A stretch of 35,864 nt of DNA from Priapulus caudatus (Eukaryota > Priapulida > Priapulimorpha > Priapulimorphida > Priapulidae), in NCBI RefSeq assembly GCF_000485595.1, contig NW_014577117.1, positions 370,495 through 406,358 of the forward strand, written 5' to 3'. Position 1 is the first letter of the stretch. The number at the start of each line of letters is the position of its first letter. The translations under genes and the position numbers were made by a program. Positions 1 to 31,438 of this stretch are shown piece after piece. Below the pieces are notes generated by a model. The model had not been told where the DNA came from. It ran no database searches and saw only the letters and a program-made list of their open reading frames with translations.

Positions 1-442
1 CAACCGGCGAAAAATATATTTGCATAATTTTCCAATTCCCAGACAATTAAAGTTGATTCAATCTCGCGATCTTGCAAAAATATCCGTTCCCCCGCTTTTT
101 AGATCTAGAACTTGCATAGACTAAAACACTGCGTCGGGTTAGATGCTGGTTTGGGCTCAAAAGACTATGATGTTTTAGTTTAGATACATCATCGCATTAC
201 TTTGGACAGAAATGCGTGCGTTTTAACGCGGAGTGGGTCAAGACCGTTCAAAGATTGTGACGTAATCGATACATGATTCTGTGCTGCCGCCTACTGTGAG
301 AAAGGTTAACTACCTGTGTTTCGCGGCGCGTTCAGCCCCAACCATTGGATCTTGGTGCTAGAGACGCCTTGCTGAATAAATGATATAGTTCTGAATGCTG
401 ACAGATAGCTTACAGAGACAGGTTTCAGTGGTGTTACTACTG
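1..442 (+). repeat. Dispersed repeat family A, copy 1 (cut by window start)
   Basis: Matches the reverse complement of 12205-12633 over essentially its whole length, with scattered substitutions and short indels. Shared landmarks are AAAATATATTTG, TTCCAATTCCCAGA, TCAATCTCGCG, GCTGCCGCCTACTG, GCTAGAGACGC and the end GGTGTTACTACTG. The homology stops at 442. The other end is outside the window, so full length is unknown. Confidence 0.85.
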
Positions 443-2371: not shown

Positions 2372-2963
2372 GTAAGTGAAGAGATTTCCATTTAAATTGT
2401 TATTATTTATTTATTTACGAAAAACTGAAGAAATATAACGCGACTACCGAGCGATATTATGAAAATGGTATATAAGGATATAACGAAATAACAGTTAGAG
2501 AAAGTATTACGAAGATAATATATTCACATAGGCAGTGCATTATGCATTATGCACGTTACGTAATACAAAGTTTAACCTGCATGATATCGTAGTTTTAATA
2601 CATTATAGCATCTCTCGTGGGTAAAGTTTTGATATGTTGCCAAGCCATCTAAACAACCAAAAAGCCTCCCACCATACACACACAGCCTACAATGCACATA
2701 CTAGTAATATATTACTATACTTCTACACCTACACTCTATACACACCTAATCAATGCCCACAATACAATCTTCTCAATACCGATAGTGTATAAATCTTTTT
2801 TACACATCACCTACCACGCGCACACTATTATTACACAGTACACACCAATCTGCTTTCCGCTACCAATGAAAATCATCCACACCCCCACACAAACGCACGC
2901 AAGCACATACACACACGCACGCGCGCGCGGTCGCTCACGCACACACATGTATATATAAACACG

Positions 2964-3015
<52 letters not shown>

Positions 3016-6000
3016 TATATAAACATAAATCACGAATCAACTACCAGTATCACTCGGTATATAATATTCACGTGTTTGAACCGGCCTATCTATCATGCAG
3101 TAAACGCAGTCTCGCTCTCGCATATATACCGCTCACTCGGATAGGCTGGTCACGTTGCGTTGAAACCCACGAGTTATTGCCGGGATAGTGATCGCATAGG
3201 CGTTGCATTATACGCTGCAATACACGGTCTGTTGATTGATGTGTCATCCGTTCCTTTTCTATCCCAACTCAGCGTATACGTACGCATTGATGCCTTACTA
3301 GATTTTCTTCCAATTTGCATGCAACGAATGGATACTTTCACGAAAACGGTGTCAGGTCTAACAAATGTAGCAAATTTCTTTTTTTCCGGGGATTGAGCAA
3401 TGCATTTGATATTGGACGGTATAACTATGTAAGGCGCGGTAGAGGTAATGTAGATGTAGCCTAGATGTTAGCAAACGCAACTACAACAGCTTGAAACGAA
3501 AGGGTTTAGCGGCTTATTAACTTCGCTATGTCTCGACTACTAATTACAACATATTGCTAAATCTGAATGTTACTAATTAGCTAGTCAAACGCCTAAGCAT
3601 TGGTTTCTCAGATTGACTACTTCCCGGCTCATGCTGTGCGCAAAATCTGTCAAAAACTATACATACTGATTAAACCTATCAGCATGTGACCGTGACCGCT
3701 AATGAAACTTCGCGACTGGGTGCAGTTAAATGCCGACCCGGAAAAACATTCCTGTTAAACTTTCAATGGTTTGACGCACACTAGTTTCTTTAACCATTAA
3801 AACGGAGAAACAGTAACATTCCTCAAACTGTGGAACGTTGCGACGGCACAACCAACATACTGACCGCGAGTTTCGGGCGACTATCGGGTGCCGCCTCAAG
3901 GTTGCGGTGACAATGACAATTAAATTTAGCAATCAGTCACACTAAACTTCATCTCGTGAAGATAACCTATTTTCGTTGGGAGCTATCGCTATTTGAAACA
4001 CGGGGAGCTTTCATATGACAGAAGGTGACGTACCTGGAATGCGCGTGCGTCTCGGCATCGAATGAATAAAATTTTCATATGTCTGAGTTTTTGCAGCACT
4101 AGACATAAACTATCTACTCAATCGTAAATGCTGATGGCGTAATCAACGCCAGACAAATGTCAGCCATGAAACTAATGAACTCGAACAGAGCCGTACGTTG
4201 TGAACGCAGTAAGACGAAAAAGACAATTTACGATTCCAATTGATACCGGCTTTCGATAAACCCAGAAAGCAATCATCGACGCAATTTATATTTAAGATAT
4301 AAAAAACAAGATAACGCGCGCAGCTAAATGTATTAATTTTCTCTCGTTTGTGGAGAACTAATCCACACTTTGTCGCTGTATGACAAAGTGTGGAAGTGAC
4401 AATACAATAGCAAGATCGAATAATCTTTATTCCGTGTTATTATACGTCTATCTCACGGCCATTCTCCTCAGTAGCCAGCTTGGTGAATCTCGGTCCGGTA
4501 TATTTCTCTTCGCCTAAGGGGAAGATCAGTCCGGTATTCGGGATCCAGGAAACGACTTTTTGCCTGGGAAATTGGAAATTTCCGTTCCCGTTTCATCTTA
4601 GGATATATTTTCAGGTGATTCGGGGGGGGGGGAATAACAATCACTCCAATATTTGCTCTACACCATTCGTAGTTTGCACATCGTTCCCTTGTGTGATGAC
4701 GTCATTCATGAGATGGTCACGGGATGCTGGGCGATGATCACGTGCTTTCTCTGATACGTCACGTGACGCCAAGCAGATGACGTTTTTTTCGTACCTGGTG
4801 AAAAAGACATTAAAACTCGTTGGGGTCTAATCGTGTTGACGTGTTGGTGATAGGCATTACCGGATGAAATAGCTGCAATGCGGATCCATAGATTCAGATA
4901 TATATCACATCTATCCATGGCTATAAGTGCCGTGTAGTCATAGCTAGTATATTAATTATCTGTGCCGACAGGTGGCGCTGATATGCTGTACAACTCGCGT
5001 AACTCTGCATCGTTTCCGCGGAGAATTACTTATTAATTAAAGCTTTAAATGCCGATTGACCGTATTAGGAATTTTTACATAAATGTGTGACTGCAACGCG
5101 ACTTTATATGATAGGAAGCCATATATGGTATTAATATTCGAAATATCTTACGTTAGATAAAAGGTTTCTCAGCAACGTTACATGTATGAACCGCTTGTTG
5201 GTAGCATTATTCAACAACCCATGTCTATACGCCTGTTTAGCTGAGCGTTCATCATGATATCGCTCGCACAGAGAACAGAGAAGAAAAGCTACAGCACGAG
5301 AAATAAACATGGCGGGGTCTCTCAGACACAAGAAGAGCAGTGTTGTTTGATTAATACTAAGAAATGACTGCTAATCGTTAAAAATACTTGGAATTAATAT
5401 ATTAATTTTTATCGTGGGATTATGCATAAATGCATTACAATCGTAGCATCAAGAGAAAACATTTTTTGGTTTATTTTGAAACAATAGTACAATGGAAAAA
5501 CACATCAGTTTTATTGTTGCAATCGCACGAATAAGAATCAATACCAATTAATTGACAACAACTACTAGAAGGCATTTTCATGAGAGTGCAATATTTTCTC
5601 TATATTATCAGGAAAGACATTGCGTGTTTGCATATTTATGAATCGTAGCATACTAGTCGCTTGCGTGTCCAATAACTAGTCTGCAGTATTGCGCTGTAAT
5701 GTTTATAACTATTAGCCTAATTTGCAGTCTAAGCCGAGAAAGATAATAAGCATCCATATGGCGAATAACATATTCCGTTTTTACTCAGGTGTATCAGACA
5801 CACGGGGTTGTGTCTAAGTAAAGTACGCGTACGTCATAAGCCTCTGTGACTCGCATGTCTCTATTTCGCATGTTAAGCATGAAATGGAACAGCCAATGAA
5901 ATTGTCTGGACTAAAAAATGAAGGACGCCATGTTTGAGAGAATTATTTATACGCACTCCCGCGTGATTTTTCAAGAACCATTTATATTCATCATGCGAAA

Positions 6001-8131
6001 TGGCATTATGTTTACGAAGATTTTTAATTTACGAATTTCAAACACAATAAGAACAATTAAAACAACAAACAGGAAGTCATTGTATGTGAAGGAGTAATAT
6101 ATATATATATATATTTGATACACTTATAATGAATCCACTTAATGTGTAAATTTTACCTCGTTATTGTCAAATAATATATTGAAGGTGGTAGCATCGGGTA
6201 TAAAGTCGACTAGTAATCATACTCGATATAGTACTGGTCAGGCATCCCGCCACCAGGATCGGTATTGTATGCTACATTCTATGTGGAATTGCTTTTGCTT
6301 AACGTTTGCTTTTGTTTGCCTCTCCTCCATTCTTCCCTCTTCGTCGTTTTTCTTACTGTCTCGTACATGCGCCCTCTCTTTCTCGCACTCCTATTGACAG
6401 CAGTGGTCACTCGAAACAAGGCTAATTCCGGTATAATTAGGTAGCATCCCTCCCCGGCTTCGCTCCGATGACATGCTAGTAGTGCTTTATTCACGCTTGC
6501 AGACAGAGGAAGGATTATATCGCATTGGCATAATTCACAGTTTTTTGTTCTATGTGGGGACTGTGGCACCAGGCGCGCGAAGGTCGCAGGGAGAGACCAA
6601 CGCCACCTGTCCGCGAATAGCTATTATTACTGGTGATATTGTATACTATCATTTACGTTTGCACGTGATTGCGTTTATTGTACCATGAAGTCAGAAATAT
6701 ACATTGGCGCTTGTAAAATACAGAGCTCGTCCTAAACCGACCAGGCTCTTCGACTGTTACACGTCGTAGGCTCTCGCAGTCGTACTCGTAGTCGTAATCG
6801 TAGTCGTACTCGTAGTCGTAATCGTAGTCGTAGTCGTAGTTGTAGTCGTAGTCGTAGTTGTAGTCGTAGTCGTAGTCGTAGTCGTCGTCGTAGTCGTAGT
6901 CGTACTCGTACTCGTAGTCGTACACCTCGTAGGCCTCTCGCCAACGTAGTGTTAAGCGAGAAGGGAACTTGTGGCTAAGCTCGTCCCAACAACAGACACA
7001 ACTATTGTCTTTTAGCTGCAACATTTACCGCACGGACTCGCTTATAACGGACACATTTTCCGGGTTTCTATTAGATGGCCCTTAAATGCAACTGTAATTG
7101 TACGCAGTAATATGAGCTGCCGTTATAATGGGGATATTTAAATCTTTGTACTTTAGAGCATCTAACATAAACATTAAATTTTCTGATTAGCGTTATATTT
7201 ACCTCTATTGACCAACGTGGATTTTTTCGTTCACTCTCATTTAATGCGTATTTATTCACTCCCTAATAAATGCCATGAAAGCCATCCTACGCGATTCAGC
7301 AAATAATAAATTATAGTAAAAGGTTGGCATTAACAGTAAATGTCAGTAAAACGCTAGTAAATAACAGGATAGTAAAAAGAGTGCTCTGCATCTGGCTACA
7401 GTGTCACGCATTCTTGACTACTATACCGTGACAAATCATCACCTGCTTTATGAATAATGCCCTCGTACTATCTGTATATTAGCAGAAGTAGATAATAGGG
7501 AATCCCCTATTATCTACTTCTGATATTATGTGTATCCAAACCATTGCAATTCGTGTAAAGTCGCTTATTACCGTAATCATGCACTCAGACCATTGCAATA
7601 ATAATTAGTTTTATTCAAACTATGATAAACAAATCAACCGCATATTTAAGCTCGGTAAACAGCAATTGTACTTCGGAATAACTCACGCGTACGTAGCTGA
7701 AACCACCCGTGCCCTTGTTAACACAACGAACCAGGGAGATTTTCGCGAGTAAATTATCCGCAGGTCTTTGTCATCGTCGCGGTTATTGCATTGATACTGT
7801 AACTGCACAGCCGGGACTTGTCTAGACGTGGTAGTGGCGGGGTTGAAAGTACCCGGCGAGCAATCATGCGTGGGCCAACATTCTCTTCCGCATGTACAGA
7901 CACGCACGTATGTACCTATACATACACACCTGCGCACGCACGCACGCACGCACGCGCGCACACGCATGAACGCACACGTGCACACATACGCGCACAAGCA
8001 TGCACACGCGTACGTGCACGCACACGTGAACGCATTAGCACGCACTCTCATACAGATACTCTCACGCGCATACATAAACACACTATCACGCGCGCACGCG
8101 CACGCGCACGCGCACACACACACACACGCGC

Positions 8132-8164
<33 letters not shown>

Positions 8165-9844
8165 CACGCACACACACACAGGCACACATCCACACAACCC
8201 TACGCATATGGTTAAGCACACATACGATCATCTAAGTCACGGTTTTCGTCTGCCGCATTCCAGCGGATTAGCTTCATTTTTTACCCGCAAACGACCGGGG
8301 AAGTGGCGCGGACGTAACGTATAAAACGTAGGAATGACACTGCTGTGCCAGAGACCTTAATGTAAAGATTAGAAACACATTATGGTTGAAAGATGATCCC
8401 TCTACTTCCGTGGTGCGTTTAGGCCACACGCACACCACACGCGCGCGAGCGTAATAATCACTTCAATCGTAAAAAGTCCCCGGCACAGCAATATATGTGA
8501 ATGTGGCAGTGAACCGTCAATTGTATGTATACTCGTCTATGTGACTTCGGTCGAATTTAAGGGCCATCCTTGCATCAATGCAATACGACGTCATGGCAGC
8601 GAGATTCCCCTTTCTGTAACCTGCTCACTTTTATTACTCAGTGATATAAATATTTTATCACGAGCTAATAAATAATACATGTTTTATTCGCTCTTGATTT
8701 TATACTAGTATGCCGCAAGACCTTTTGACACCTACTGCCATCTAGTGAGAAACTCAAACAACTTCAGCCTGACAAAATTCGCTCTCATTTGCAGGTGGCC
8801 TGCACCAGTGCCATGAAATCCGGGGAGAACATGGGCGAGGGAACTCCGGATCCGAAAATCCAGTACTATCAGCGCGAGGAGGCGCAGCCCGAGCCAGCTG
8901 CCGACTACACGCTGCCGCAGCAAGCGCATGACTTCACGGACGCACCGGAGCAGTCTGGCTTCCGCGTCGTACAGGGCACAGTGTCGCCCGTCGTGCAGGG
9001 TAGCGCCGTGGCGGTTGACCTCGGAACCCTGGACCTGGACACCCTCGGATTCCTGTCGGGCGTCGATGTGGGCAGTGTGGGTGGGGGCAGCACCGCTCGG
9101 TCGGGGGCCACAAACTTCATGCTGAACGTTCGACGAAGCGGCGCGGTCGGCAGAGCTAACGCCGGTGACGCTGCGACGTCGTCCGTCGACCGACAGGTGG
9201 TCGGTGGCGCCGCCACGCGGCCGAAGCAGGCCGTGGTTACGCAGGATGCACCGCTGAGTATCTTGTTTGGTGGATTGAATCCTGGGTCGGCACAGACGAC
9301 GTCCGTGAGTGTCGACAGACAGGTGATTGGCGGCAGCAAGACGATCGGTGACAGCTCTGCGCTGTCGTTTGACGGGTCGGGCTCGTTAGTAGGCTCGGGT
9401 AAGCCATTTACTACGTCGTTTGGAGTTCGAGGAGCAACTACAGATAACCACGGAATTACTTTCGGCGAGTTCCCCTCCACAGCTGACCAGCCTGCTCAGG
9501 CTTTTGGCAGCCAGCCATTAGCTGCTGATGCGTTCCCCGGCCCCCAAAACCAGATATACGCGGGTCAGGTCTCCGGCACAACCACACGCAAATCTCCAGG
9601 AACTCGGGAGCCCAGCCAAGACGGGGTAGGATACCTTGAGGGAAGCATCTATAATCCGTATTCGGACAGAAAATTCGTCAGCCAACACGGGAAATTCGTA
9701 CGACCGGATAATCCACAATATCCCGGTCGAGCATTTCCGGTCAGTGCCAGTCCGTCTGACATCACGCAGGATAGTCAGAGTACGGGAGGCCTTCTCGGGT
9801 CGAATTACGAAACAACACCGCAGCAACAACAGCAGCAGAAACAA

Positions 9845-9876
<32 letters not shown>

Positions 9877-12800
9877 ACAGCAGCAGCAGCAGCAATACAC
9901 TGGAGTACAGCAGCAATTCGCAGTGGCGGATGGTAACTTCGCCGGCCAGTCCCGTCCGCTAGACTCTACTTACGGAGTGGCGTCCGCGGGGCAGCAGTCG
10001 GTGGTACCTGACACAGCCCCACTCGGAAGCAGCTTTGGTATACCCACATCATCGGACACAAGCTACGGCTTACCATTCACGGCGACAAATCGAAAACAGA
10101 AGAGCGGTGCTACAGAAGGCAGGGCCGGACTAGCGGACACTAATCAGTATATCGCTAGCGGCAGAGGTCTGTATGGCAATGTAGGTCGTCGCCAGTACGG
10201 CAATGCCGGTGATGGTCAGTATGAAATTGATAATCGTGGGCAGTACGGGGGTCAGTACGGCACGCAAGACCAGCTCGCTGGACGCGCGCAATATGACGGG
10301 CAAGGTCGGAACGCCGCACGAGTTCCGTTCGGACGTGGTCAGCAGTTTAGCAGGTTAGGTCTTGACCAACGCGAATTGGTCGGGAGAGATACTTACTGGG
10401 CCGATTCACCGGGTCAACAAGGTGTCGGGATTGGTGGGCAACAAACAGGTGGCAGAGTAGAGCCGCAACAGTATGGCATCGATGCACAGAACCAGTATGG
10501 AGCCGGAATACAAAACCAACCCGCATACGTCGACGCAGGCACACCGGGCCAATATGCAAGTACGCAATACGGGGTCGGTGAACAGAGCATAAACCCATTT
10601 CTCACCGGTGACAGCGCTACACTTGGAGACACTCAATTTGGAGGCGGAAACGCGGGTCCGTTTTCTCGACCGGCGTTCTCACGTGAACCACCCATACAAC
10701 TCGTCGGTCGGAATACAGTCGGAATCGATCCGATTTCGTTGTATCCGTACGAAAACAATGGAGCTTTGATCAGACGCCAGCAGGCGGAAAATAATCAGTT
10801 CCAAGTCGGGATTGATCCTGTGTCGCTGTATCCGCGCGAGGAGTTGAGAGCAGGACAGCAGGGCAATCGACAGCAAACGTTTTCTCGGCAGAACGCATTC
10901 GGCGCTAGTGGGTTAAGGCAGAACCGTTTCGGCGGTTTCAATAGTCGGCAAACGAGCTTCACGCCGAACAACTTCGGCGGCTTCGGTAGCCAGCAAACCA
11001 GCTTTGCGACGAACAACTTTGGCGCTTCAACCCTCACCGGGAGCGCCGGACAGGTGCCGAACATCGGCGTCTCCGTGCAGGAGAAACCCAGCACTGCAAT
11101 CGTCGGCAACTACGGCATATTCGCCAACGTCGGCGCGCCCATCAGAGAGCAACAGCAGTCAACATTCTCTGGTGTCTCCACACTGGGAGGGCGGCAGGAC
11201 TTCGCGGCGAATCAAGTCAACGGCAATCTTTTCGGGCAGCGTCGTCGCGGAGTCGCCGGGTTAGGTGTCGGCATATCGGACGCGGGCGGCATCCTCCCCG
11301 AAGAGCGACGAGCCGCCGTCAGCGTCTCGTCAGAGCAGGGCAACTTACAAACCGGTTCGTTTCAGTCGAACGGAATATTCAATCCGTATAAGAACGCCGC
11401 CGGATCTTCCGCGAGAAGCGGAACCCGAGGCGGATCCACGAGCAGAGCAGGAGAACAAGATCCGAAACAGTCGCACGTATCGCGGGGTAGATCCCGAGAG
11501 ACGAGTCAAAACCGTGTGAGGCTGGACATCGGTAATGGGCCAGGCTCTGAATTCATCGACAGAGCGACTCTTTACAATCCTTTCGCTAGCCAGCAGCAAG
11601 ATGCCGGTACGAGGACGCAGGGAGGCCTGACGACGTACGGAGGCGTGGGCAACGCAGCTGCTCAAGACTCGGAGTTAACGCAGTACGGACGCGCCTTCAA
11701 TGGACAGGTCAGAGGCATCACGGGTTCAGCGGGTGAGCGTGGCGGCCAGGTAGACCTGAGTCGCGGCTCGTCGACGTTTAGAACCGGATTCGCTTCGTCA
11801 TCCGGAAGATCATCGTCATCAGTAGACGATGGCTTCATTTTTCCGTGGAAGACGACAGCCTCTCAGCAGCATCGCATAGGCGGCGCCGGAACGAGGATCG
11901 GCGTCAGTTCTCGGGGCGGCGATAGGCAGCCGGTCCACTATCAGATACCAGGGTTTGGCAGCAGCTTCCAGACACGCGAGCGTGCTAGTCAGCTTGATGC
12001 TGGCCAGGATGATAGGCAAAGGACAAGGCTGTCGGGCAGTGAAGACAGGTCTCGCGCTACAAGCCGCGGTAGCAGGGCAGGTATAGGAGCCGCCTTTATA
12101 GATGTCCAGAATGACTCTGATTTTGTTGCTGGGCGAAGAAAAGGGCAGGTGGACTACCAAGGCAGGTCACGCGCTACAAGCCGCGGTAGCAGGGCAGGTA
12201 TAGACAGTAGTAAACACCACTGAACCTGTCTTGTAAGCTATCTGTCACATTCAGAATAATCATTTATACAAGCGTCTCTAGCAACAAATCAATGGTTGGG
12301 GATCGAACCGCCCGAAAACAGGTAGTTAACATTTCTCCCAGTAGGCGGCAGCACAGAATCATTATCGATTACGTCACAATCTTTACGGTCTTACCATCCG
12401 CGTTAAAACCACCGCATTTCTGTCACAAATAATCGATGATGTATCTAAACTAAAAACATCATAGTCTTTTGAGCCAAACAGCACCCTAACCCGACCAGTG
12501 TCTTTATGTTTGTTCGCTCGCATCTATTGCAAGTTTAGATCTAAAAACGGGGGAACGGATATTTTCAAGACGCGAGATTGAATCACTTTAATTATCTGGG
12601 AATTGGAAAATATCAAATATATTTTTCGCGGTTCCGAAATAGAAGTGAGCCGGGAAGATCACCCGAAATTGTGATTTTCGGGATCCAGGAAACGACTTTT
12701 TGCCTGGGAAATTGAAAATTTCCGTTCCCGTTTCATCTTAGGATATATTTTCAGGTGATTCGTGGGGGAAAAATAACAATCACTCCAATATTTGCTCTCT

Positions 12801-15800
12801 ACCATTCGTAGTTTGCACATCGTTCCCTGGTGTGATGACGTCATTCATGAGATGGTCACGGGATGCTGGGCGATGATCACGTGCTTTCTCTGATACGTCA
12901 CGTGACGCCAAGCAGATGACGTATTTTTCGTACCTGGTGAAAAAGACATTAAAACTCGTTGGGGTCTAATCGTGTTGACGTGTTGGTGATAGGCATTACC
13001 GGTTGAAATAGCTGCAATGCGGATTCATAGATTCAGATATATATCACATCTATCCATGGCTATAAGTGCCGTGTAGTCATAGCTAGTATATTAATTATCT
13101 GTGCCGACAGGTGGCGCTGATATGCTGTACAACTCGCGTAACTCTGCATCGTTTCCGCGGAGAATTACTTATTAATTAAAGCTTTAAATGCCGATTGACC
13201 GTATTAGGAATTTTTACATAAATGTGTGACTGCAACGCGACTTTATATGATAGGAAGCCATATATGGTATTAATATTCGAAATATCTTACGTTAGATAAA
13301 AGGTTTCTCAGCAACGTTACATGTATGAACCGCTTGTTGGTAGCATTATTCAACAACCCATGTCTATACGCCTGTTTAGCTGAGCGTTCATCATGATATC
13401 GCTCGCACAGAGAACAGAGAAGAAAAGCTACAGCACGAGAAATAAACATGGCGGGGTCTCTCAGACACAAGAAGAGCAGTGTTGTTTGATTAATACTAAG
13501 AAATGACTGCTAATCGTTAAAAATACTTGGAATTAATATATTAATTTTTATCGTGGGATTATGCATAAATGCATTACAATCGTAGCATCAAGAGAAAACA
13601 TTTTTTGGTTTATTTTGAAACAATAGTACAATGGAAAAACACATCAGTTTTATTGTTGCAATCGCACGAATAAGAATCAATACCAATTAATTGACAACAA
13701 CTACTAGAAGGCATTTTCATGAGAGTGCAATATTTTCTCTATATTATCAGGAAAGACATTGCGTGTTTGCAAGCCGCCTTTACAAATGGCCAGAATGCTT
13801 CTGATTTTGTTGCTGGGCGAAGAGAAGGGCAAGTGGACTACCAAGGCAGGTCACGCGCTACAAGCCGAGGAAGCAGGGCAGATGCCGGCTTTGACTTTAT
13901 AGTTGATCGGGTTGATTCTCCGCTTGTTGTTGGACAAGGAGACGGTCAAGTGGACTACCAGGACAGGTCACAAACCACAAGTCGCGGTAATAGAGCAGGT
14001 TCAGGCAGAGGAAAAGGGATAGTGGACTACCAAGGTAGGTCACGCGCTACAAGCCGCGGTAGCAGGGCAGGTATAGGAGCCGCCTTTATAGATGTCCAGA
14101 ATGACTCTGATTTTGTTGCTGGGCGAAGAGAAGGGCAGGTGGACTACCAAGGCAGGTCACGGGCTACAAGCCGAGGAAGCAGGGCAGATGCCGGCATTGA
14201 CTCTATAGTTGGTCGGGTTGATTCTCCGTTTGTTGTTGGACGGGGAGACGGGCAAGTAGACTACCAGGACAGGTCACAAACCACAAGTCGAGGTAATAGA
14301 GCAGGTTCAGGCAGAGAAGAAGGGATAGTGGACTACCAAGGCAGATCACAAACAGTAAATCGCGGTGGTAGTACGGACACTCGTAGAAACTTCGACGACC
14401 TGCGTAGGGCAGAAGACAGACGCCAGGGTCGAATAATCAGCAACTCAGTCGTTAGCTACGATACGACGGGCTCAGACGACCTATCACAGGTTAATGCATG
14501 GACGGGGCGAGGTAGAAATCGAAGACCGATCGCGGCCGGCGGTACTGTTGCCGGAGATAGCGTAGCGGAAGGAAGCGTCGGCACTAACATTGGGGTGCGC
14601 TTTAGCGAACAAGATATCAAACGCTATCAGCAGAGAACGTTTAAGCCGGCGCATGTAACGTTCGCTCCGGTACAGACACCTGGTAGAGACTTCAACACGA
14701 TTGTTCGGACGACCGCTAAGCCGTATACGGAGAGACCTGTGGCCAGGCGTGTACCCGACATTCCGGCGGTTATCACGGGACAGAGCGTGATACTCAGCGA
14801 TGATAGATTGCGTGGTAAGTAACGACGGTATTGTATGCTACATTCTATGTGGAAATATTGTACAGCCGGTATTGTATGCTACATTCTATGTGGAAATATT
14901 GTAACTCGCACGCTCTTTCAAGTTTTCAATATGCGTCATGTATATTGAATGTCAAACCTCAATAAAAACTTCAGGTGATTAATGTTAGCGGATGAGTATA
15001 ACAGATAATAAACGGGTTTTCTATCTCCAAAATACAAGCATGCGATCTAATTACGCACCACCGTGACAGTGAGAAGCTTGGCATATGAACAGGTTGTATT
15101 CACTGTAATGTCAATAGCCCCATCGTATCCTATAACTGAATACAGATTAGCAATAAATACGAACTTTTATTGACCTCTGTCGACGAATATCTGTAAAGTG
15201 TATTTTAGTTCTAGGGGATAGTTGGAGAATGACGAATATCTCATTAGAATAACAATATTCTTGTTCCTTCTACGGAATATTCATTCTATAAATGTTAATA
15301 AAATACAATATGGCGGCTGCTTGTATTAAGAGCTCAAATATGTGCAGATGAAATAAGAAACGTACAACGTTAACTAGTTAATTAATACGCAAATTCTTAT
15401 AAAGACTTAATTGTAACTTAATTAAAAATGGTGCTTTAATTTATAGGATATTTAATCCATAAATGACTTGTAATTCGAAAGTAGGCATAAGAAAAATGGC
15501 TTGTGACTGTCTGCCCAATTTCTATCTACATATTACTATTTTGTATATACTAGCAATAATCATAGAATCATATAATTATGTAGCATTTCTGTATAAACCT
15601 TTGAACAAGTTGTTTTAATTTGCAGAATAATGAAATTCTCTAACAATGAAAATATTCACAAAGGTAAAATCACTGATCGCACACACGAACGAGGAATTCT
15701 TTTTCTCGAATTTCTATCCGGTAATAATAATTTCAATTTTCCTTCACGAGTAATCGTGTTAGGTTTGCCGCGGCTCACCACGCGGTAAATGACGTGCATG

Positions 15801-15881
15801 CGCCGATCTTTGAATTTTCCTGAATGCGTTATTGGTTCGTGCGCGTCGTCTATAGGTTACGGCATTTCCTTGTTGTTCTCT

Positions 15882-15950
<69 letters not shown>

Positions 15951-17371
15951 ATGAGTATATGCATAGATATATATATGTGTGTGTGATAGAAGGACGTATG
16001 CGTTGACCTCGATGAATTTTCTGTGTCCGCGAAATGTCAGCGTACCTGAGACCACACACAAATGATTTCATTACGTATGTTACGTGTCTATATCTACACG
16101 TGCCTAGCGTAAGTATAGAGCTTCATCATACACGCAAAGCAATATCGGACGACTAATCTCATGCGCTGCTTCACTCTAGACGTGAACGTACACTGCGACA
16201 CGCAGCGGAAGGTGATGGTCATCAACCTGCACTTCAACAAACCGTTCTCCGGCTCCGTCTACCCGAAGGGCTACTTCAAAAACTCCGTGTGCAATCGAGC
16301 AGTAGAGAGTCTCACTGATCCAGTTATCGAGATTCCCCTTGACGGATGCGGCACAGTGGAGGGAGACGTGAGTACCGCCATTTTGGTTCAATTGACACAT
16401 TCCCATGAAGTGATTAACAGGAAGCTGAGCCGGTCGGCGTTGTGATAGGATGTTCTAAAAGTCATTGCTTGGGTGCGCGTGTTAAAACCATGTGTAAACT
16501 GGTTCAGCTTGACTCGTCTAGCAACAATTTTTAACGTGGTGTCGTTATCTCGCTCGAACACATCGGTCAATTAATTGAACGGCATTGTCTCGGCATCAAC
16601 AGATTGTAAGCAACTCAGGAATTTAACGAGAAATTATTTCTAACTGTTTAATAAATAAGTAAATAAATCTCTGCCCTTTTATCCTTGAGGCCCTCCATCG
16701 CGTCCGATTGGAACTATAGTTCGGAATCGCGTATGAGACATGTTCACACGCGTGCGATCTGAATACGCGATGTGCTCGACGCGCGACGTCTTAAAACGTA
16801 GTCCGTTAGCATATAAGATTACGATGCAGGATTATATTTGATATTTTTATTTAAGTAATTACCAATGCAAAACTTTACAAACAATGTGTACACTAACAAT
16901 TTGCGGGCGAACAATTACCACGGATAAATACGCAAACTACTGTGACAAACGCTCAATTACATTGTGATCCTTAGGCGTCATGCACATATCAGCAAGATGA
17001 AAATACATATGGAATAACTCGTACCCTGACAGCTTGGCTTCTTGCTTCTCTTGCAGTCGTTCGCCACCGATAGACCCAGTGGGGTGTTCGAGAACACGGT
17101 CATAGTGATGAACGATCGAGTGTTCAACGTGTTGTGGTCAACCGACAGAGCCTACACGGTCCGCTGCACAACCGGAACCGGATCCGCGAACAAGCGTGTG
17201 TCGGCCGGTATCACAGTTCCGTAAGTCGGTGCAACATCCCATCCCGTCGCTCTTCTGATATTTCTATCGATGCTCCTGCTTCCACTCATCCGCGGTTATA
17301 GTCAGTTAGTAGGGAGTAGTTAGTTAGTTAGTAAGTTAGTTGGTTAGTTAGTCCGTGAATTCGTTATTTAC

Positions 17372-17402
<31 letters not shown>

Positions 17403-19350
17403 TTTGTTTGTTTAGTTAGTTACTTAATTACTTAGCTAGTTAGTTGGTGCATAGCTTATAAAATGTAGTTTGGAGTAAAATCGCATGGATACATACGTTC
17501 GTCTGCTGTTTATTTCTATTTGAACTAGGACAAATTAGGTTTCCACAGCCTAACAGTGCGCTTGTTGTTGTAGGATGGTGCGCGGGACAACACTGCCACC
17601 TGTCGACGCCCTTACAATGCCAGACATCTATCTAAAGGTTATAGATGGCAGGGACCCGCGGTCAACACCCACCAACACGCTGCTCGTGGGCAATTTGGCT
17701 TCCATCGTCATTTACTACGATAACACAGGTGCGTTCCATGCTACTGAACTTGGGTGGTGTAATACAACACATGTCGCCAGATAAAGGTCAACACTCCCTA
17801 TCAGACTTTCCTTTCACGTACTCGCTATAGACCTCGTAATACCGCTATACGATGGGTAATATAATAGGGAAAGATAAATATCGTAACAATAACAATAACG
17901 TAATATTAACGTAATATGTATATACATATAAATACAGTGTAATAATATAGTGAGATATTAGGCGCGTTCACACACAAGAAAAACCGCGATTCTAATCGCG
18001 ATGAAATACCGAGATAATTGTGTCGTTGTTCACACAGGCGAATAATTGCGCTAATCGCCGAGCGGGATAATTCTATTAATAGAACTGCGCATGCTCACTG
18101 CCGGAATGATACTCACTGCGCATGCTCACTGCTCTCTCGCTTGGAATGATGGGATAGAAAATACCGGGATTATTTGCGCGAGCGTTCACACACGCAAATA
18201 ATCGCGCTAAAATACCGGGATTATTTGCGCGAGCGTTCACACACGCAAATAATCGCGCTAATTCCAAAGCGAGCGTTCACACACGCAAATAATCGCGCTA
18301 ATTCCAAAGCGAGCGTTCACACACGCAAATAATCGCGCTAATTCCAAATAATCGCAGTCAAAAGTGCGATTTGGAGCGCGATGCTGATCGCGATTATTAG
18401 TGGGTATTATTGCGTTCACACTTGTAATAATCTCGGTATTTCGATCGCGATGCAAAAACCGGGATTTGCATCCCGCTTATTCGCGCCAGTGTGAACGCGC
18501 CTAATAGTATATTCCTATTACTTTACTCTTGATTATATGAAAGATCGATAACTATATGACAGGTGACGATGCCACCGCTGGCGGGTAGAACAATGACAAT
18601 GATGACTGTTATTAGTTGATTGACAACCGCTGATCTCTATCGGAGATCAAGTGTAGTTGTTTGTAATCCCAAAGCGTATTTTATAGTTTTATATGTGTAT
18701 TTAGAAAGGCCACCTACGTAACCGGTTCACGACACCCGGTGGCAGTTAGCTCAGTCAAACGTGTGTCAAACGCTAATACATTTTTATGCCTAGGGCTAAC
18801 AAAATTGTTGGAAACGCAGAGACGCAGAAATTTGATTAGTTAATAAATGCAAGTCAATTGATTATGTGTTTATATTTTTGGGCGCGCCTTGAACGCATAT
18901 TTATTGGTATATTATGGGTGTACATTCATTGTGTGGATGTAATGTATCGTCACGTGATCGTAGTATTTTAATAACAACGCCAGACCTACTGCAAATTTAT
19001 TCGACCGTAATTCTTTATATAAATGTGCTCATTGCAGATGACTGGGGAATATGGGTGACTGATTGCTATGCTCACAGCGGCACCGAGATAGGAAGAGTGG
19101 ATCTCATAGATAATAACGGGTAGGTGGATGTCGAAAATAACAGCCGAGGCGACAGACAAACTAGCGCAAATGTTTGCTTCACGGGTATCCCATCGGCACT
19201 GTCCGTCACGTTATGTCGTCAAGGCAATGGATATACTTTGTAGCTGACCCAGTTGCTTTTAGTTATCGGCTAAATACACACGCGCGCAGACAAAAACGCA
19301 AGCATGCACGCGCACACACACAACCTCATGCACACGCACGCGCACACGCG

Positions 19351-19412
<62 letters not shown>

Positions 19413-20254
19413 ATATGCCCGAGTCATTAGTGATTGATGTCAAGAATATCTACATTCAATTTCATACAAGTTCAATTTTAACTGTTAACATGTATCTGTA
19501 TTTATAATATGAAAAGATGCTCTCTTCCGCAATGTGAAGCGCAGTAATGCAATGTATAGCAGAACCAATGCATTGCTTCATGCCAATACCAACTTACCAT
19601 CTAAAGGTAATCGTAAACCTAGATCACAAGCAACGGTGACCACCATCACGCGTCGATTCGCTCGTTATGCTGACTTCTCTTTCTCTCTCCGCAGATGTCC
19701 TATTAATCGGAAACTGATCGGGAAGTTCAACAATAATCCGCAGTACAACGGAAATGGCGTCACCTACGTGTACGCCATCTTTAAGAGCTTCAAATTCCCG
19801 GACAAGGAGAATGTCTATTTCGAATGCAACGTGAACATCTGCAAGGACAACTGTGAAGCCGTGAGTATTCGCCGCCGTATACTATGAAGACAAGCATAAC
19901 TACAAACGCGCTATATTGCATTTCATTGATTTGAGGCCTCTATTATTAAAGGGAATTCATTCCTAATGTATCCATAGATGAGCAACGTTCCACTAGTTCA
20001 GATCTCCGTGTGAAAAAAACCATGGTGAGAAAAGTGTAATCTAATGCTAGAATCTGTGTGAGTGAGTGAGTGAGTGTGTGAGTGTGTGAGTGAGTGAGTG
20101 AGTGAGTGAGTGAGTGAGTGAGTGAGTGAGTGAGTGAGTGAGTGAGTGAGTGAGTGAGTGAGTGAGTGATTGATTGATTGATTGAGTGAGTGAGTGAGTG
20201 AGTGAGTGAGTGAGTGAGTGAGTGAGTGAGTGAGTGAGTGAGTGAGTGAGTGAG

Positions 20255-20301
<47 letters not shown>

Positions 20302-22202
20302 GTGAGTGAGTATGCGAGTAAGTGAGTAAATGAATGAATGAGTGAGTGAGTGAATGAATAAGTGAGTAAATAAGTGAACGTTTTTACCATATATTCAAAC
20401 ATTGACTGATACTTTCTTTCGCAAGATCGAAGCATTATCACTGTTATTTAAGAACTGACGACAGCATTGCCATTTCATATTACTGCATTAGATAGAGCCG
20501 CTGTATTTGCTGCAGTGTACCGCATGCTATGCTGGGGTGAGAGGATGACCAACTCTGTCTCCGCCCGTGTAAGATTACTACGTGTGTCAGGGCAGCAGCT
20601 AACCTCTACAAGACGCATCGACTAATCGCGATAATAGATGTCCATTGCGCATGTACGTGTTGACAGATGCAATCGTAGTACTTAAGTGGCGACTCCCCGA
20701 TGATGACCGATGATGGCCGATGATGACCGACGCACGCGAGTGCGCAGTTCCGGAAATCGGAATATACAGGAAGCGCACTCTCCTCGGAAATCCGGAGAAA
20801 TCCGGATTCGACTTCTTGCATCGGTTGGGTGGGTGTGGGAGTTGGTAGAGGGGTTACTGGGGGAAAAACGGGGACGGAAGTTATTTATGGTGGACATAAT
20901 TCCTTTGATTTTTTGGACGGAAGTAGTCAAAACGGGGACGGAAGTTATTTATGGTGGACATAATTCCTTTGATTTGATTGGCTTGGATTATATGCGGGCA
21001 TATATTCCTCGCTTCCCATTGGTCGATTTATGGTGACCATAAATATGATTTATGGTGACCATTAATATGCAGTCATGTATTCTTGATTTTTGTCCACTGT
21101 GGCCAACCATATGCGTCTGTGTAAAAACGACGTTCATTTGTTTATCGCAGAAGCAATGCCCCTCTAGTGGCAGACGCGGTAAACGCTCGCTGGACGTGGA
21201 GGAGGACGAGAGCGAGGAAGAGGCTACCGAACATACGCAGGAGAAGCCATTCAAGCAGACGCTATCGAACCTAGCTCAGACTACCAACGTCTACAAAGGC
21301 ATCCGGATCTATCTCTCCGGAGAGTCGGGAGCTAACGAATTCCTTCGTAAGTGGCATGCAGAAGCGAACAGAGGCTTAGAGATATTTAGAGCAATAACGT
21401 GGTGATGATAAGTAGCGTTTTAGATAACCTTAAAGATGGCGTTGGAAAAGACATGTGAATAAACATTATCGCCCAGAAAATCGGCAGATATTTAGCGATT
21501 ATGTTGATATAACAACGCTTACACGTTTAAACAATTCCGCGCAATAACATGATTAAGAATACGACCACCCTCTCAGTGAGCCGTATTATTGACGTACTCT
21601 TAACAATTTTCATCATTACACCTTCTGATTATATACTACATAGGCCTATGTGAGACATAAAATGTTATTTTTTATAACTGTGAAGTAGCATAGCCTGGCG
21701 TAATGACAGTGGTCTTTCAGTAAACGCTGCCTTCTATAGCTATAATCATTACCCCTCTCGTGAGAAAATAGTTATCATACGTTAGAAGAAGCAGCTTAGA
21801 ACAAAAGGGATCCTGTTCTATAACGCACCATATTTCGCGAAAGAAGCAAGTTACTCGAGCCGAGTTTATACCACAGGTGTACGACACCCGTGCCCCCATT
21901 TAAGCAACTACTCTATGCTGTATGCAAGTTTAAATCACTCCCGGTGGTTGTTTTGGATGTTTGCAGATCGATTCAATAATCGCTACGTGAAACACGGCGA
22001 CGACTGCGTGGACACGATGGTTCTCGTCTTGTCCTTCTCCATCATGACCCTGCTGCTCATCTCAACCTTCGTCACGGTGGCGCTCATGTTCGCCAGATGG
22101 CGGCACCATCAGCTGATCAGAGAGAAGGTTGCCGATGTATCGAACGAATACTACCTGAAGCCGCTGCAGTTTACACCGGGGACGACCGCCGCCTATCGCT
22201 AG
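2339..22202 (+). CDS. Ten-exon gene for a secreted/membrane-anchored zona pellucida (ZP) domain protein (joined CDS)
   Basis: Exons 2339-2371, 8795-12197, 13774-14814, 16180-16367, 17057-17220, 17574-17728, 19038-19119, 19695-19860, 21151-21346 and 21967-22202 join in phase into 5,664 nt (1,887 residues plus stop), all with GT-AG introns. Domain order: signal peptide (1-17), low-complexity Gln/Gly/Ser ectodomain with polyQ (354-378), Arg/Ser/Gly tandem repeats (about 1110-1345), linker, ZP domain (about 1493-1750), furin-type site RRGKR ending at 1756, membrane span (about 1826-1851), and a 36-residue cytoplasmic tail. ZP proteins are known to polymerise into apical extracellular matrices such as cuticle or egg coat after furin cleavage releases them from the membrane, so a structural matrix role is inferred. 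Exon choice rests on splice consensus, phase agreement and ZP conservation. The specific orthologue is not recognised; the long repeat ectodomain is unlike short cuticlins. Existence of the gene is near certain; small exon-edge errors are possible. Confidence 0.9.
2881..3024. repeat. CA microsatellite with duplicated ATGTATATATAAAC flank
   Basis: (CA)n interrupted by CG steps. The block ACACACATGTATATATAAAC occurs at 2941-2960 and again at 3005-3024, so the array has been partly duplicated. Confidence 0.9.
4363..4393. repeat. Perfect 12-bp inverted repeat (hairpin)
   Basis: CCACACTTTGTC at 4363-4374 pairs with GACAAAGTGTGG at 4382-4393 across a 7-base loop. Function unknown. Confidence 0.85.
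4537..5632 (+). repeat. Family B repeat, copy 1 (intron 1)
   Basis: About 1.1 kb nearly identical to 12677-13771. The copies differ at only a handful of positions, mostly in the first 350 bp, including a G-run reading 13 G against a mixed GTGGGGGAAAAA. The match ends sharply after GCGTGTTTGCA (5632). Both copies contain the same 66-codon minus-strand reading frame, which shows no coding signature and is simply copied. No clear terminal inverted repeats. Confidence 0.92.
6260..6288 (+). repeat. Dispersed single copy of the 14826 tandem unit
   Basis: The 29 bp from CGGTATTGTATGC to ATGTGGAA are identical to the units at 14826 and 14867. Confidence 0.85.
6779..6932. repeat. GTCGTA hexanucleotide satellite
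   Basis: About 25 imperfect units of GTCGTA with TTGTA and CTCGTA variants. The minus strand reads as alternating Tyr-Asp, which is a repeat artefact rather than a protein. Confidence 0.93.
7484..7521. repeat. Perfect 17-bp inverted repeat (hairpin)
   Basis: AGAAGTAGATAATAGGG (7484-7500) pairs with CCCTATTATCTACTTCT (7505-7521) across the loop AATC. It is perfect, so either young or maintained; it could be a solo transposon-end palindrome or a small hairpin RNA. Confidence 0.9.
7904..8182. repeat. CA/CG compound microsatellite
   Basis: Nearly 280 bp of alternating purine-pyrimidine sequence (CA, CG, CGCA units). Frames in all directions are His/Thr/Arg or Cys/Val artefacts. Such DNA could adopt Z form. 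Confidence 0.92.
8795..12197 (+). CDS. Exon 2: large low-complexity ectodomain (residues 12-1145)
   Basis: A 3.4 kb open exon. The acceptor is ctcatttgcag at 8794; the donor G|GTATAG at 12198 leaves phase 1. It completes the signal peptide (VACTSA) and then encodes Gln-, Gly-, Ser- and Arg-rich sequence without cysteines after the signal region. Visible repeats are VDRQV(V/I)GG at 142-149 and 184-191; VGIDP(I/V)SLYP at 653-662 and 682-691; N-P-(Y/F) at 298, 611, 874 and 939; a QYG-rich stretch at about 462-605; and NNFG/GFG-type repeats around 715-760. The end carries SRGSRAG-type repeats that continue in exon 3. Reading on past 12197 in frame meets a stop at 12221, inside inserted repeat DNA. 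This is an intrinsically disordered matrix-protein type of sequence; no known domain was recognised. Confidence 0.88.
9821..9895 (+). repeat. CAG/CAA tract coding polyglutamine
   Basis: Twenty-five codons in exon 2 (residues 354-378) encode glutamine with one lysine at position 360. CAG and CAA codons are mixed, which normally lowers slippage. The tract lies in frame inside the ectodomain. The antisense strand reads as poly-leucine, which is a shadow. Confidence 0.95.
12044..12197 (+). repeat. Coding tandem repeats at the end of exon 2 (SRGSRAG type)
   Basis: Two [12 protein letters not shown] motifs, joined by a segment [20 protein letters not shown] and GQVDYQG, end exon 2. The same module recurs in exon 3, so the array is split by intron 2. 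The unit here is uninterrupted at GCAGGTATAGGAGCC (12077-12091), which gives the reference for judging how intron 2 arose. Confidence 0.9.
12205..12633 (-). repeat. Dispersed repeat family A, copy 2, inverted
   Basis: Reverse-complement copy of 1-442. It starts with CAGTAGTAAACACCACTG directly after the coding remnant GGTATAGA. On the minus strand it contains GGTTCGATCCC (around 12295-12310), which fits the B box of a tRNA-type internal promoter. No convincing A box was seen, so a SINE origin is only a possibility. It forms the 5' part of intron 2. Confidence 0.85.
12677..13771 (+). repeat. Family B repeat, copy 2 (intron 2)
   Basis: Near-identical to 4537-5632 at an offset of about 8,140. 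Its end at 13771 falls two bases before the exon 3 start, so the repeat end and the splice acceptor nearly coincide. The high identity implies a recent copy or gene conversion. Confidence 0.92.
13774..14814 (+). CDS. Exon 3: Arg/Ser/Gly repeat array and linker (residues 1146-1492)
   Basis: Acceptor ...tttgcaag at 13773; donor CGTG|GTAAGT at 14815, phase 1. It encodes [12 protein letters not shown] and then two 102-residue units, starting at residues 1152 and 1254, each containing VDYQ(G/D)RS motifs followed by TSRG(S/N)RA. After about residue 1345 comes a non-repeated, basic, Thr/Val/Pro-containing linker with [19 protein letters not shown] and [14 protein letters not shown], leading into the ZP domain. 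An ATG lies upstream at 13719 in the same frame, but the residues before 13774 lie in intronic repeat DNA and the phase match with exon 2 is exact. Confidence 0.86.
13791..14370 (+). repeat. 306-bp in-frame tandem repeat, about two units
   Basis: Units begin at 13791 (QNASDF) and 14097 (QNDSDF), exactly 306 bp or 102 codons apart. Each contains shorter sub-repeats of VDYQxRSxxTSRGxRA roughly every 33 residues. The second unit decays at [10 protein letters not shown]. Nucleotide identity between the units is high, pointing to recent duplication or ongoing homogenisation. Confidence 0.9.
14826..14903 (+). repeat. 41-bp tandem duplication next to the exon 3 donor
   Basis: Two identical 37-bp blocks starting CGGTATTGTATGC, at 14826 and 14867, separated by CAGC. 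A partial third copy is at 6260-6288 in intron 1. Confidence 0.92.
15885..15948. repeat. CA microsatellite
   Basis: Almost pure (CA)n with one TACA step, followed by a 34-bp block also found at 22329. Confidence 0.95.
15949..15982 (+). repeat. 34-bp dispersed repeat, copy 1
   Basis: Begins ATATGAGTATATGCATAG and ends ATATGTGTGT; identical to 22329-22362. Both copies adjoin a long microsatellite. Confidence 0.9.
16180..16367 (+). CDS. Exon 4: start of the ZP domain (residues 1493-1555)
   Basis: Acceptor ttcactctag at 16179, donor GAC|GTGAGT at 16368, entering in phase 1 and leaving in phase 0. It encodes DVNVHC, then a beta-strand-rich segment with cysteines at 1498, 1530 and 1549 and the [12 protein letters not shown] signature. 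This matches the ZP-N half, in which the first conserved cysteines and a Cys-Gly-Thr motif occur. An AG at the same place as the phase demands, plus a pyrimidine tract, supports the start. Confidence 0.92.
16368..17056 (+). other. Intron 4 of the ZP gene
   Basis: gtgagt donor, cttgcag acceptor, phase 0. I see nothing else of note in it. Confidence 0.8.
17057..17220 (+). CDS. Exon 5: ZP domain, end of ZP-N half (residues 1556-1610)
   Basis: Acceptor cttctcttgcag, donor CC|GTAAGT at 17221, phase 2 exit. It encodes [27 protein letters not shown] and YTVRC. The F-x-N-T-V-x-V strand followed by a cysteine in YxVxC is characteristic of ZP-N. Confidence 0.92.
17221..17573 (+). other. Intron 5 of the ZP gene
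   Basis: gtaagt donor, tgtag acceptor, phase 2. Contains GTTA and TTAT tetranucleotide repeats at about 17297-17440. Confidence 0.85.
17297..17440. repeat. GTTA and TTAT tetranucleotide repeats
   Basis: A run of GTTAGTTA units passes into a pure (TTTA)n block and back to GTTA, a compound tetranucleotide satellite. Confidence 0.9.
17574..17728 (+). CDS. Exon 6: ZP linker and start of ZP-C (residues 1610-1662)
   Basis: Acceptor gttgttgtag at 17573, donor ACAG|GTGCGT at 17729, phase 1 exit. It encodes [20 protein letters not shown] and then [27 protein letters not shown], the usual ZP-C opening with a hydrophobic strand, a Gly and a VG-L-I segment. Confidence 0.92.
17958..18504. mobile_element. 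MITE-like element with TTAGGCGCGTTCACAC termini and TA target duplication
   Basis: The left end TTAGGCGCGTTCACAC and right end GTGTGAACGCGCCTAA are perfect inverted repeats. TA flanks both sides (17956-17957 and 18505-18506). No transposase frame is present, so it is non-autonomous. Inside, GCGAGCGTTCACACACGC and AATAATCGCGCTAA blocks recur tandemly and are themselves echoes of the terminal repeat. A TA target would suit Tc1/mariner-like transposases, but the superfamily is not established. Confidence 0.82.
18170..18352. repeat. Internal tandem repeats of the MITE
   Basis: Units of about 40-50 bp carry GCGTTCACACACGCAAATAA followed by TCGCGCTAA; about four units, the last three with ATTCCAAA. 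A duplicated TGCGCATGCTCACTGC lies just before, at 18085-18131. Confidence 0.88.
19038..19119 (+). CDS. Exon 7: ZP-C segment with the DC/AHSG motif (residues 1662-1689)
   Basis: Only 82 nt. Acceptor ctcattgcag, donor GG|GTAGGT at 19120, phase 2. It encodes [15 protein letters not shown] and VDLIDNNG, the ZP-C pattern in which a Cys is followed by A-x-x-G and LIDxxGC. The glycine is completed by exon 8, which starts A-TGT, giving the GC pair. Confidence 0.92.
19120..19694 (+). other. Intron 7 of the ZP gene
   Basis: gtaggt donor, ctccgcag acceptor, phase 2. Contains a CA/CG then TA microsatellite at 19277-19412. Confidence 0.85.
19277..19412. repeat. CA/CG then TA compound microsatellite
   Basis: CA and CG steps pass into about 25 TA units ending TTTATATATAAT. 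Confidence 0.93.
19695..19860 (+). CDS. Exon 8: ZP-C core with FKFPD and cysteine cluster (residues 1689-1744)
   Basis: Acceptor ctctctccgcag, donor GCC|GTGAGT at 19861, phase 0. It encodes [11 protein letters not shown], then [24 protein letters not shown] and NCEA. The aromatic FKFPD strand followed by three closely spaced cysteines is a strong ZP-C hallmark. Confidence 0.94.
20058..20376. repeat. TGAG/TGAT tetranucleotide satellite
   Basis: About 300 bp of TGAG units with TGAT blocks and decayed edges (TGAA, TAAG). The minus strand reads THSLTHSL and NQSI repeats, which is not a protein. Confidence 0.95.
20768..20863 (+). repeat. 96-bp dispersed repeat, copy 1
   Basis: Identical over all 96 bases to 31343-31438. 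Begins AGGAAGCGCACTCTCC and ends GGGGTTACTGGGGG. Confidence 0.95.
20865..20975 (+). repeat. 64-bp period tandem duplication
   Basis: The block starting AAAACGGGGACGGAAG and running to CCTTTGATT occurs at 20865 and again at 20929. A 22-bp period duplication of GATTTATGGTGACCAT follows at 21024-21068. Confidence 0.9.
21151..21346 (+). CDS. Exon 9: last ZP cysteine, furin site, acidic linker (residues 1745-1810)
   Basis: Acceptor tgtttatcgcag, donor C|GTAAGT at 21347, phase 1. It encodes KQC, then [10 protein letters not shown], a basic furin-type cleavage site ending at residue 1756. A very acidic stretch [15 protein letters not shown] follows, then VYKGIRIYL, which could be the external hydrophobic patch that in other ZP proteins blocks premature polymerisation. 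The patch assignment is inference. Confidence 0.92.
21347..21966 (+). other. Intron 9 of the ZP gene
   Basis: gtaagt donor, gtttgcag acceptor, phase 1. Nothing else recognised. Confidence 0.85.
21967..22202 (+). CDS. Exon 10: transmembrane segment, cytoplasmic tail and stop (residues 1810-1887)
   Basis: Acceptor ggatgtttgcag at 21966. It encodes [16 protein letters not shown], then a roughly 26-residue hydrophobic span (about 1826-1851), a basic stop-transfer sequence RWRHH, and a tail ending TPGTTAAYR before TAG at 22200-22202. This is a type I anchor, as usual in ZP proteins. No canonical AATAAA was found soon after the stop. Confidence 0.93.
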
Positions 22203-22942: not shown

Positions 22943-22983
<41 letters not shown>

Positions 22984-23004
22984 CTATATATATAATTATA
23001 TATT
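22203..23004. other. 3' flank of the ZP gene
   Basis: Likely includes the 3' UTR, but no AATAAA lies close to the stop. Holds a TA microsatellite with the second 34-bp repeat copy (22329-22447) and another TA run (22944-23004). Short frames here show no recognised product. Confidence 0.5.
22329..22447. repeat. 34-bp dispersed repeat copy 2 plus TA microsatellite
   Basis: 22329-22362 is identical to 15949-15982; it runs into about 80 bp of TA/TTATA sequence. Confidence 0.9.
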
Positions 23005-31342: not shown

Positions 31343-31438
31343 AGGAAGCGCACTCTCCTCGGAAATCCGGAGAAATCCGGATTCGACTTCTTGCATCGGT
31401 TGGGTGGGTGTGGGAGTTGGTAGAGGGGTTACTGGGGG
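31343..31438 (+). repeat. 96-bp dispersed repeat, copy 2
   Basis: Identical to 20768-20863. The identity ends where an inverted-repeat element begins. Confidence 0.95.

What the first reader, a model, noticed from the sequence alone, without database searches (positions are those of the whole stretch)
12190..13785. Intron 2 looks like a recent spliceosomal intron created by repeat insertion into a coding tandem repeat
Intact coding units (12077-12091 and 14067-14081) read GCAGGTATAGGAGCCGCC. At the intron, the left flank is GCAGGTATAGA and the right flank AGCCGCC. Put together they give an unbroken unit with one G-to-A change and nothing missing. Between them sit 1,567 bp (12205-13771) that match dispersed repeats elsewhere in the window. 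The donor (G|GTATAG) and acceptor (AG|CC) are both former coding bases, phase 1 on each side, so splicing loses only 9 coding bases (three codons) and keeps the frame. Unspliced, the reading frame stops at 12221. This would be a clear case of intron gain with splice sites recruited from the host exon, made visible because sister repeats keep the uninterrupted state.
Basis: partly seen in the sequence, partly recalled or inferred. Interest (0 to 1): 0.88.

Follow-up and report, generated by a model that had tools for sequence, protein, structure and literature searches.

The report
Recent insertion splits a coding repeat
A 1.57-kb piece of DNA, found in the assembled genome only in this one neighbourhood, has recently landed inside a repeated coding stretch of an animal surface-protein gene, where it looks like a newborn intron, although its splicing has not been shown and the proposed splice sites are weak.

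Summary
The insertion is real. 12205-13771 (1,567 bp) interrupts a coding tandem-repeat unit of a ten-exon ZP-domain gene (2339-22202). The flanks rejoin to sister units with one G>A difference at the join and nothing lost. In the closest paralogue found, the N-terminal region is one unbroken 4.35-kb frame, so intron absence is probably ancestral.

(1) The insert is not a dispersed repeat. In the 385-Mb assembly its only long matches are two partial copies in the same window; only a ~180-bp fossil repeat inside it is dispersed. No terminal inverted repeats, target duplication 0-1 bp. (2) Junction 12197|13774 is not privileged: 83 of 1,106 GT-AG pairs restore the full frame. Its acceptor ranks 41st and 58th of 78 in two matrices; a better acceptor, TTATCAG|G at 13751, lies inside the insert but pairs in frame with donor 12165, not 12197.

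Best reading: a very young intron candidate made by local insertion, probably spliced inefficiently or at other sites. A frame-breaking, possibly polymorphic, insertion remains a serious rival. No transcript was available. New member of a known kind.

The parts
12205..13771 (+). insert A, 1,567 bp, CAGTAG...TTTGCA; no terminal inverted repeat seen, target-site duplication 0-1 bp
   Evidence: only full-length match in the assembly, termini
12042..12204 (+). coding tandem-repeat units upstream of the insert (period about 117 bp); interrupted unit ends at 12204
13772..14349 (+). coding tandem-repeat units downstream; the second half of the interrupted unit starts at 13772
12077..12094 (+). uninterrupted sister site GCAGGTATAGGAGCCGCC, upstream
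14067..14084 (+). uninterrupted sister site, downstream
13731..13750 (+). element-borne acceptor TATTTTCTCTATATTATCAG|G (exon would start 13751, phase 2); rank 1 and rank 3 of 78 AGs in two matrices, rank 20 in a short one
12163..12167 (+). host CAG|GT donor (exon ends 12165, phase 2), frame-compatible with acceptor 13751 and with 13850; weak too
4537..5632 (+). copy B, partial copy of insert positions 473-1567 in intron 1 of the same gene; same 3' end; flanked by TATT/TATT
2..442 (-). copy C, inverted copy of insert positions 1-429, same 5' end, runs into an assembly gap; indel-noisy
12545..12730 (+). fossil dispersed repeat 'M' inside the insert (13 further pieces in the genome, 70-81% identical), with 18-nt inverted arms at 12551-12568/12712-12729; the only part found to be dispersed

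Best explanation
A 1,567-bp, low-copy, locally duplicated DNA segment recently inserted, with a target duplication of 0-1 bp, into one coding repeat unit of a ZP-domain surface-protein gene (shown). The segment carries a stop in the gene's frame and a good-looking 3' splice site near its own right end, and the host repeat units offer CAG|GT sites in all three phases (shown). I infer that the spliceosome now removes it from at least part of the transcripts, making it a nascent intron. Removal would use host donors with either the insert's own acceptor (13751, in frame with donor 12165) or weak acceptors around the right end (13756, 13774, 13794, 13850), while mis-spliced and unspliced RNA meets an early stop and is probably degraded (inferred). 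The exact junction 12197|13774 is one candidate among several and not the strongest.
For: Empty site restored to the base from sister units. Insert ends coincide with the ends of copies B and C. The closest paralogue found has one unbroken 1,451-aa stop-to-stop frame before its ZP exons. Full 1,887-aa ZP protein if spliced. Only three long copies found in 385 Mb, all in one 14-kb stretch. Acceptor 13751 ranks 1st of 78 AGs in one matrix and 3rd in another. 83 of 1,106 GT-AG pairs and 15 of 40 CAG|GT-to-CAG|GT pairs keep the frame to the natural stop. New introns in Drosophila are reported to have weak splice sites and more often carry premature stops (PMC2809761, abstract). Daphnia neointrons are reported in some cases to recruit neighbouring exon bases or leave insert bases in the exon (PMC4202315, passages).
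Against: No transcript seen. The four top-scoring donor-acceptor pairs all break the frame, among them 12197|13751, which ends after 1,195 aa; the best pair that keeps the whole frame ranks fifth of 1,106. In the gene-trained matrix the host donors near the insert (12148, 12165, 12197) all score below the gene's eight other donors, so my preferred donor 12165 is weak too. In a short acceptor matrix 13751 ranks only 20th of 78 and lies below the eight native acceptors. An intact frame downstream proves little at 1% divergence.
Confidence: 0.52

Rival explanations
1. The insertion disrupts the gene. It is not productively spliced, and this haplotype makes a 1,153-aa protein without the ZP domain, or no protein; the insertion may be polymorphic or slightly deleterious.
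Against: The other exons stay open through the ZP domain to the stop; many frame-keeping pairs exist, including one with the best acceptor in the recalled-frequency matrix. The assembly shows no second copy of the coding unit outside this contig, so no empty allele was found to test polymorphism.
Confidence: 0.3
2. One reading: an intron spliced at 12197|13774, both sites recruited from former exon bases, losing three codons.
For: Canonical GT-AG, phase 1/1, keeps the frame; Florenciella introners are reported to co-opt both sites from the target (PMC9860276, section 7 read).
Against: Acceptor GCAAG|CC ranks 41, 58 and 53 of 78 in three matrices; the pair ranks 205 of 1,106, and sixth among 83 frame-keeping pairs; a stronger AG precedes it by 23 nt.
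Confidence: 0.12
3. An old intron invaded by repeats.
For: Intronic sequence similar to part of intron 1 of the same gene (copy B).
Against: The sister units contain the would-be intronic bases GTATAG and AG as continuous coding sequence; the one paralogue examined has no intron in its long N-terminal frame; the non-host stretch begins and ends exactly at the ends of the other copies.
Confidence: 0.02
4. Assembly artefact: a locally repeated segment wrongly placed inside a tandem array.
For: The window lies between two N gaps, and gap-adjacent sequence is indel-noisy.
Against: Both joins are seamless within a repeat unit with nothing lost, and A differs from B at 11 positions plus one gap, so A is not a pasted copy of B. 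The window itself holds no N.
Confidence: 0.04

Closest known systems
Introners / transposon-derived introns (PMC9860276: passages and section 7 seen)
   Same: Insertion into an exon that may be spliced out; families without target duplication or terminal repeats, and families that co-opt both splice sites, are described there.
   Different: Introners there are families of 5 to more than 2,000 copies per genome, median lengths 30-654 nt. Here one candidate intron, 1,567 bp, with three local copies, the other two not shown to be introns.
Transposon-insertion introns of rice, maize, Drosophila, Oikopleura (PMC3443670: passages and Table 1 seen)
   Same: Single insertion events into exons, precise or nearly precise splicing by latent sites.
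   Different: No transposon family recognised here; no AGGT target duplication.
Daphnia pulex neointrons linked to double-strand-break repair (PMC4202315: passages seen, abstract in part)
   Same: Young insertion, no requirement for a transposon, neighbouring exon bases recruited in some cases.
   Different: Daphnia neointrons average about 78 bp; here 1.57 kb of sequence found only locally.
Introns from tandem genomic duplication of AGGT-bearing exon segments (PMC3443670 passages; PMC4974935 listing only)
   Same: Host repeat units carry CAGGT, so unit-to-unit splicing is possible.
   Different: The intronic sequence is not a duplicated exon segment but foreign to the exon.

Membership tests
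Introner family | many sequence-similar copies acting as introns in different genes | tested here: not met
   Long parts found only in this window. 5' 22-mer, up to 3 mismatches: 1 site, exact (reversed control 3 sites). 3' 22-mer: 2 exact sites plus one with 3 mismatches (reversed control 2 sites). The tool calls its counts lower bounds and the assembly has gaps.
Introner family | spliced out of transcripts | not testable with these tools
   no RNA data held
DNA transposon (cut-and-paste) | terminal inverted repeats and fixed-length target duplication | tested here: not met
   no inverted pair joins the two ends, 0-1 bp duplication at A; a TATT repeat flanks copy B, 1.2% by chance
LINE/SINE retrotransposon | common 3' end, 5' truncation, poly-A or simple tail, target duplication | tested here: inconclusive
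   A and B share the 3' end and B lacks the 5' part; no tail, 0-1 bp duplication at A, and not dispersed
Recent intron gain | ancestral state without the intron | tested here: met
   sister units uninterrupted; one paralogue's frame unbroken; orthologous loci in related species not available
Recent intron gain | functional splicing of the new sequence | not testable with these tools
   no transcripts; sites weak
ZP-domain (cuticlin-like) protein | ZP-N and ZP-C domains above curated cut-offs | tested here: met
   PF00100 39.9 bits (cut-off 24.6), CUT_N 33.6 (27), CUT_C 34.5 (30)

The most novel reading that the evidence does not exclude
A new intron born not from a dispersed transposon but from a locally duplicated, low-copy 1.57-kb segment that brings its own 3' splice site, inserted with at most a 1-bp target duplication into a coding tandem array. 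Because the units of the array carry CAG|GT in the same phases, the spliceosome can remove the insert in many in-frame ways, including whole-unit skipping. Coding tandem arrays would then be buffered landing pads where new introns can survive until better splice sites evolve.
Probability: 0.2. Interest if true: 0.66.

Novelty: new member of a known kind. Interest (0 to 1): 0.42.

Why it matters
Recent intron gains for which both the inserted sequence's other copies and the pre-insertion state are visible in one genome seem rare in animals (my reading of the papers seen, not a survey). Here the empty site survives in sister units of the same gene and the other copies lie within 14 kb. Splicing of the new segment, its efficiency and its presence in the population could therefore be measured with ordinary RNA reads and one PCR.

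Tried and rejected
Dispersed transposon or introner: rejected on copy number.

Patchwork of copies B and C joined by template switching: considered. The fossil repeat M is intact in A across the point where similarity to B begins (12677), whereas B has only its last third, starting where its similarity to A starts (4536-4589). That fits B as a truncated copy better than B as a template, but it is not decisive because C runs into a gap.

Diverged M left half in B: a weak alignment (28 of 500 shuffles as good) was not confirmed by the profile search.

5' terminal hairpin: seen by eye, no better than shuffles. TATT repeat at copy B as target duplication: 245 of 20,000 random pairs match as well; left open.

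Rfam: no match at gathering thresholds. Element ends in viral contigs: none. Protein searches: two Priapulus caudatus ZP proteins, 37% and 32% identical; the full-length query found nothing. In some searches only the 7,979 and 7,997 candidates sharing most words were scored. Species therefore not named.
Full report
What is there. The window carries what looks like a complete animal gene on the + strand. The only relatives found in the protein database were two ZP proteins of the priapulid Priapulus caudatus, 37% over 54% of the query and 32% over 75%; a full-length query found none (searches scored only the candidates sharing most words). The genome held for the window has 385,217,808 bases in 2,952 contigs, and the window is C57:370495-406358.

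The insertion. The coding repeat units read GCAGGTATAGGAGCCGCC without interruption at 12077-12094 and 14067-14084. At 12205-13771 a 1,567-bp segment sits between ...GCAGGTATAGA and AGCCGCC.... The two flanks joined equal the sister units at the join except A for G at 12204; identity is lost at once inside the segment. The right half of the interrupted unit has 5 further differences in its first 28 bases. The six bases GTATAG and the bases AG that would become intron ends are thus ordinary coding bases in the sisters, which is hard to explain if an old intron had been there. In the closest paralogue found (C455; ZP-C part 75-77% identical, ZP-N part 47-48%) the N-terminal region before the ZP exons is a single stop-to-stop frame of 1,451 aa. 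It ends beyond a GT and is followed by a ZP exon with a matching acceptor context. I read this as the intron-less ancestral structure. One paralogue was examined; one search lists 56 matches, several of them other ZP loci that I did not open. The paralogue does not carry the 117-bp units, so the position itself cannot be aligned.

What was inserted. Within the window the segment matches copy B (4537-5632, intron 1 of the same gene; 11 mismatches and one gap in 1,096 columns) and copy C (442 down to 2, inverted; 7 mismatches but 42 indel runs). The 5' end of the segment coincides with the end of C and its 3' end with the end of B. Genome-wide, 16 matches were returned: the segment itself, B, C, and 13 short pieces that all fall in query positions 341-478. 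Terminal 22-mers with up to 3 mismatches give 1 site, exact, for the 5' end (reversed-pattern control 3 sites). For the 3' end they give 2 exact sites plus one with 3 mismatches (control 2 sites). So the segment is local and low-copy, not a dispersed transposon. The tool warns that counts are lower bounds and the assembly has gaps, so hidden copies cannot be excluded. The dispersed pieces belong to an old repeat of about 180 bp (12545-12730, nhmmer 125 bits against a profile made from the 13 pieces). B holds only its last third, beginning where its similarity to A begins, so B looks like a truncated copy. Copy C runs into a 1,951-base N gap directly upstream of the window; its indel pattern looks like uncorrected long-read gap filling (inference), so its 84.6% identity should not be read as age. 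No inverted pair joins the two ends. At A there is no target duplication, or at most one base; B is flanked by TATT on both sides, which 245 of 20,000 random pairs also achieve.

Is it an intron? No transcripts are held. Unspliced, translation stops at 12221. Keeping the frame is not diagnostic: of 1,106 GT-AG pairs (GT at about 12040-12260, AG at about 12400-13900), 83 give the full protein. The acceptor TTATCAG|G at 13751 scores 7.2, rank 1. With matrices trained only on the gene's other eight introns, 13774 ranks 58 of 78 and 13751 ranks 3, but these matrices are small and the native acceptors themselves score from -6.3 to 9.4 when left out. Donors 12148, 12165 and 12197 (-5.6, -7.2, -7.5) all fall below the eight native donors (-1.1 to 7.0). 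In a short acceptor matrix 13751 ranks only 20 and lies below the native range, and 13774 ranks 53. The pair 12197|13751 breaks the frame (1,195 aa); 12165|13751 keeps it and is the best frame-keeping pair by score (rank 5 of 1,106). The array offers further exits: 15 of 40 CAG|GT-to-CAG|GT joins across the insert keep the full frame, for example 12165|13850, which joins one unit to the same point of a later unit.

How it most likely works. Shown: insertion, polarity, copies confined to this locus in the assembly, open downstream frame, weak exon-derived sites and a better-scoring element-borne acceptor. Inferred: that the spliceosome removes it, with unspliced and frame-shifted RNA degraded by nonsense-mediated decay. 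Weak sites backed by such decay are reported for new introns in Drosophila (PMC2809761, abstract only). That gained introns can take neighbouring exon bases, or leave insert bases in the exon, is reported for Daphnia (PMC4202315, passages). The main rival is a plain disrupting, perhaps polymorphic, insertion.

Against what is known. Insertions that become introns are an established kind: transposon-insertion introns in rice, maize, Drosophila and Oikopleura (PMC3443670, passages and Table 1), and introners, some without target duplications and some co-opting both splice sites (PMC9860276, section 7 and passages). The membership test for an introner family fails on copy number. The unusual features are the local low-copy sequence and the coding tandem array as target. 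I saw no title or abstract on exactly that combination in the listings of seven full-text searches, of which searches are the ones aimed at it; some listings were capped at 8-10 rows. This is a limited search.

Recounts confirmed the indel and mismatch numbers. Added at that point: the weakness of donor 12165 and of 13751 in the gene-trained and short matrices as evidence against, and the pattern-search controls.

Noticed in passing
window 22955-26576 and 32444-35863: A 3.5-kb direct duplication whose copies differ mainly by small indels (over the first part 42 mismatches against 130 indel runs in 2,015 columns). The second copy abuts an N gap and looks like uncorrected long-read gap filling or a false duplication.
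   Followed up: partly
window 1-442: Gap-adjacent sequence with insertion-rich indel noise relative to the clean copy at 12205-12633 (32 insertion and 10 deletion runs against 7 mismatches).
   Followed up: partly
window 20768-20863 and 31343-31438: Perfect 96-bp repeat.
   Followed up: no
window 6260-6288, 14826-14854, 14867-14895: A 29-bp sequence present once in intron 1 and twice, in a 41-bp tandem repeat, at the start of intron 3 just after the donor of exon 3.
   Followed up: no
C455:67513-75250 (L038): A paralogue with the same plan: long polyQ-bearing N-terminal frame followed by ZP exons; the genome holds many further ZP matches (56 rows).
   Followed up: partly
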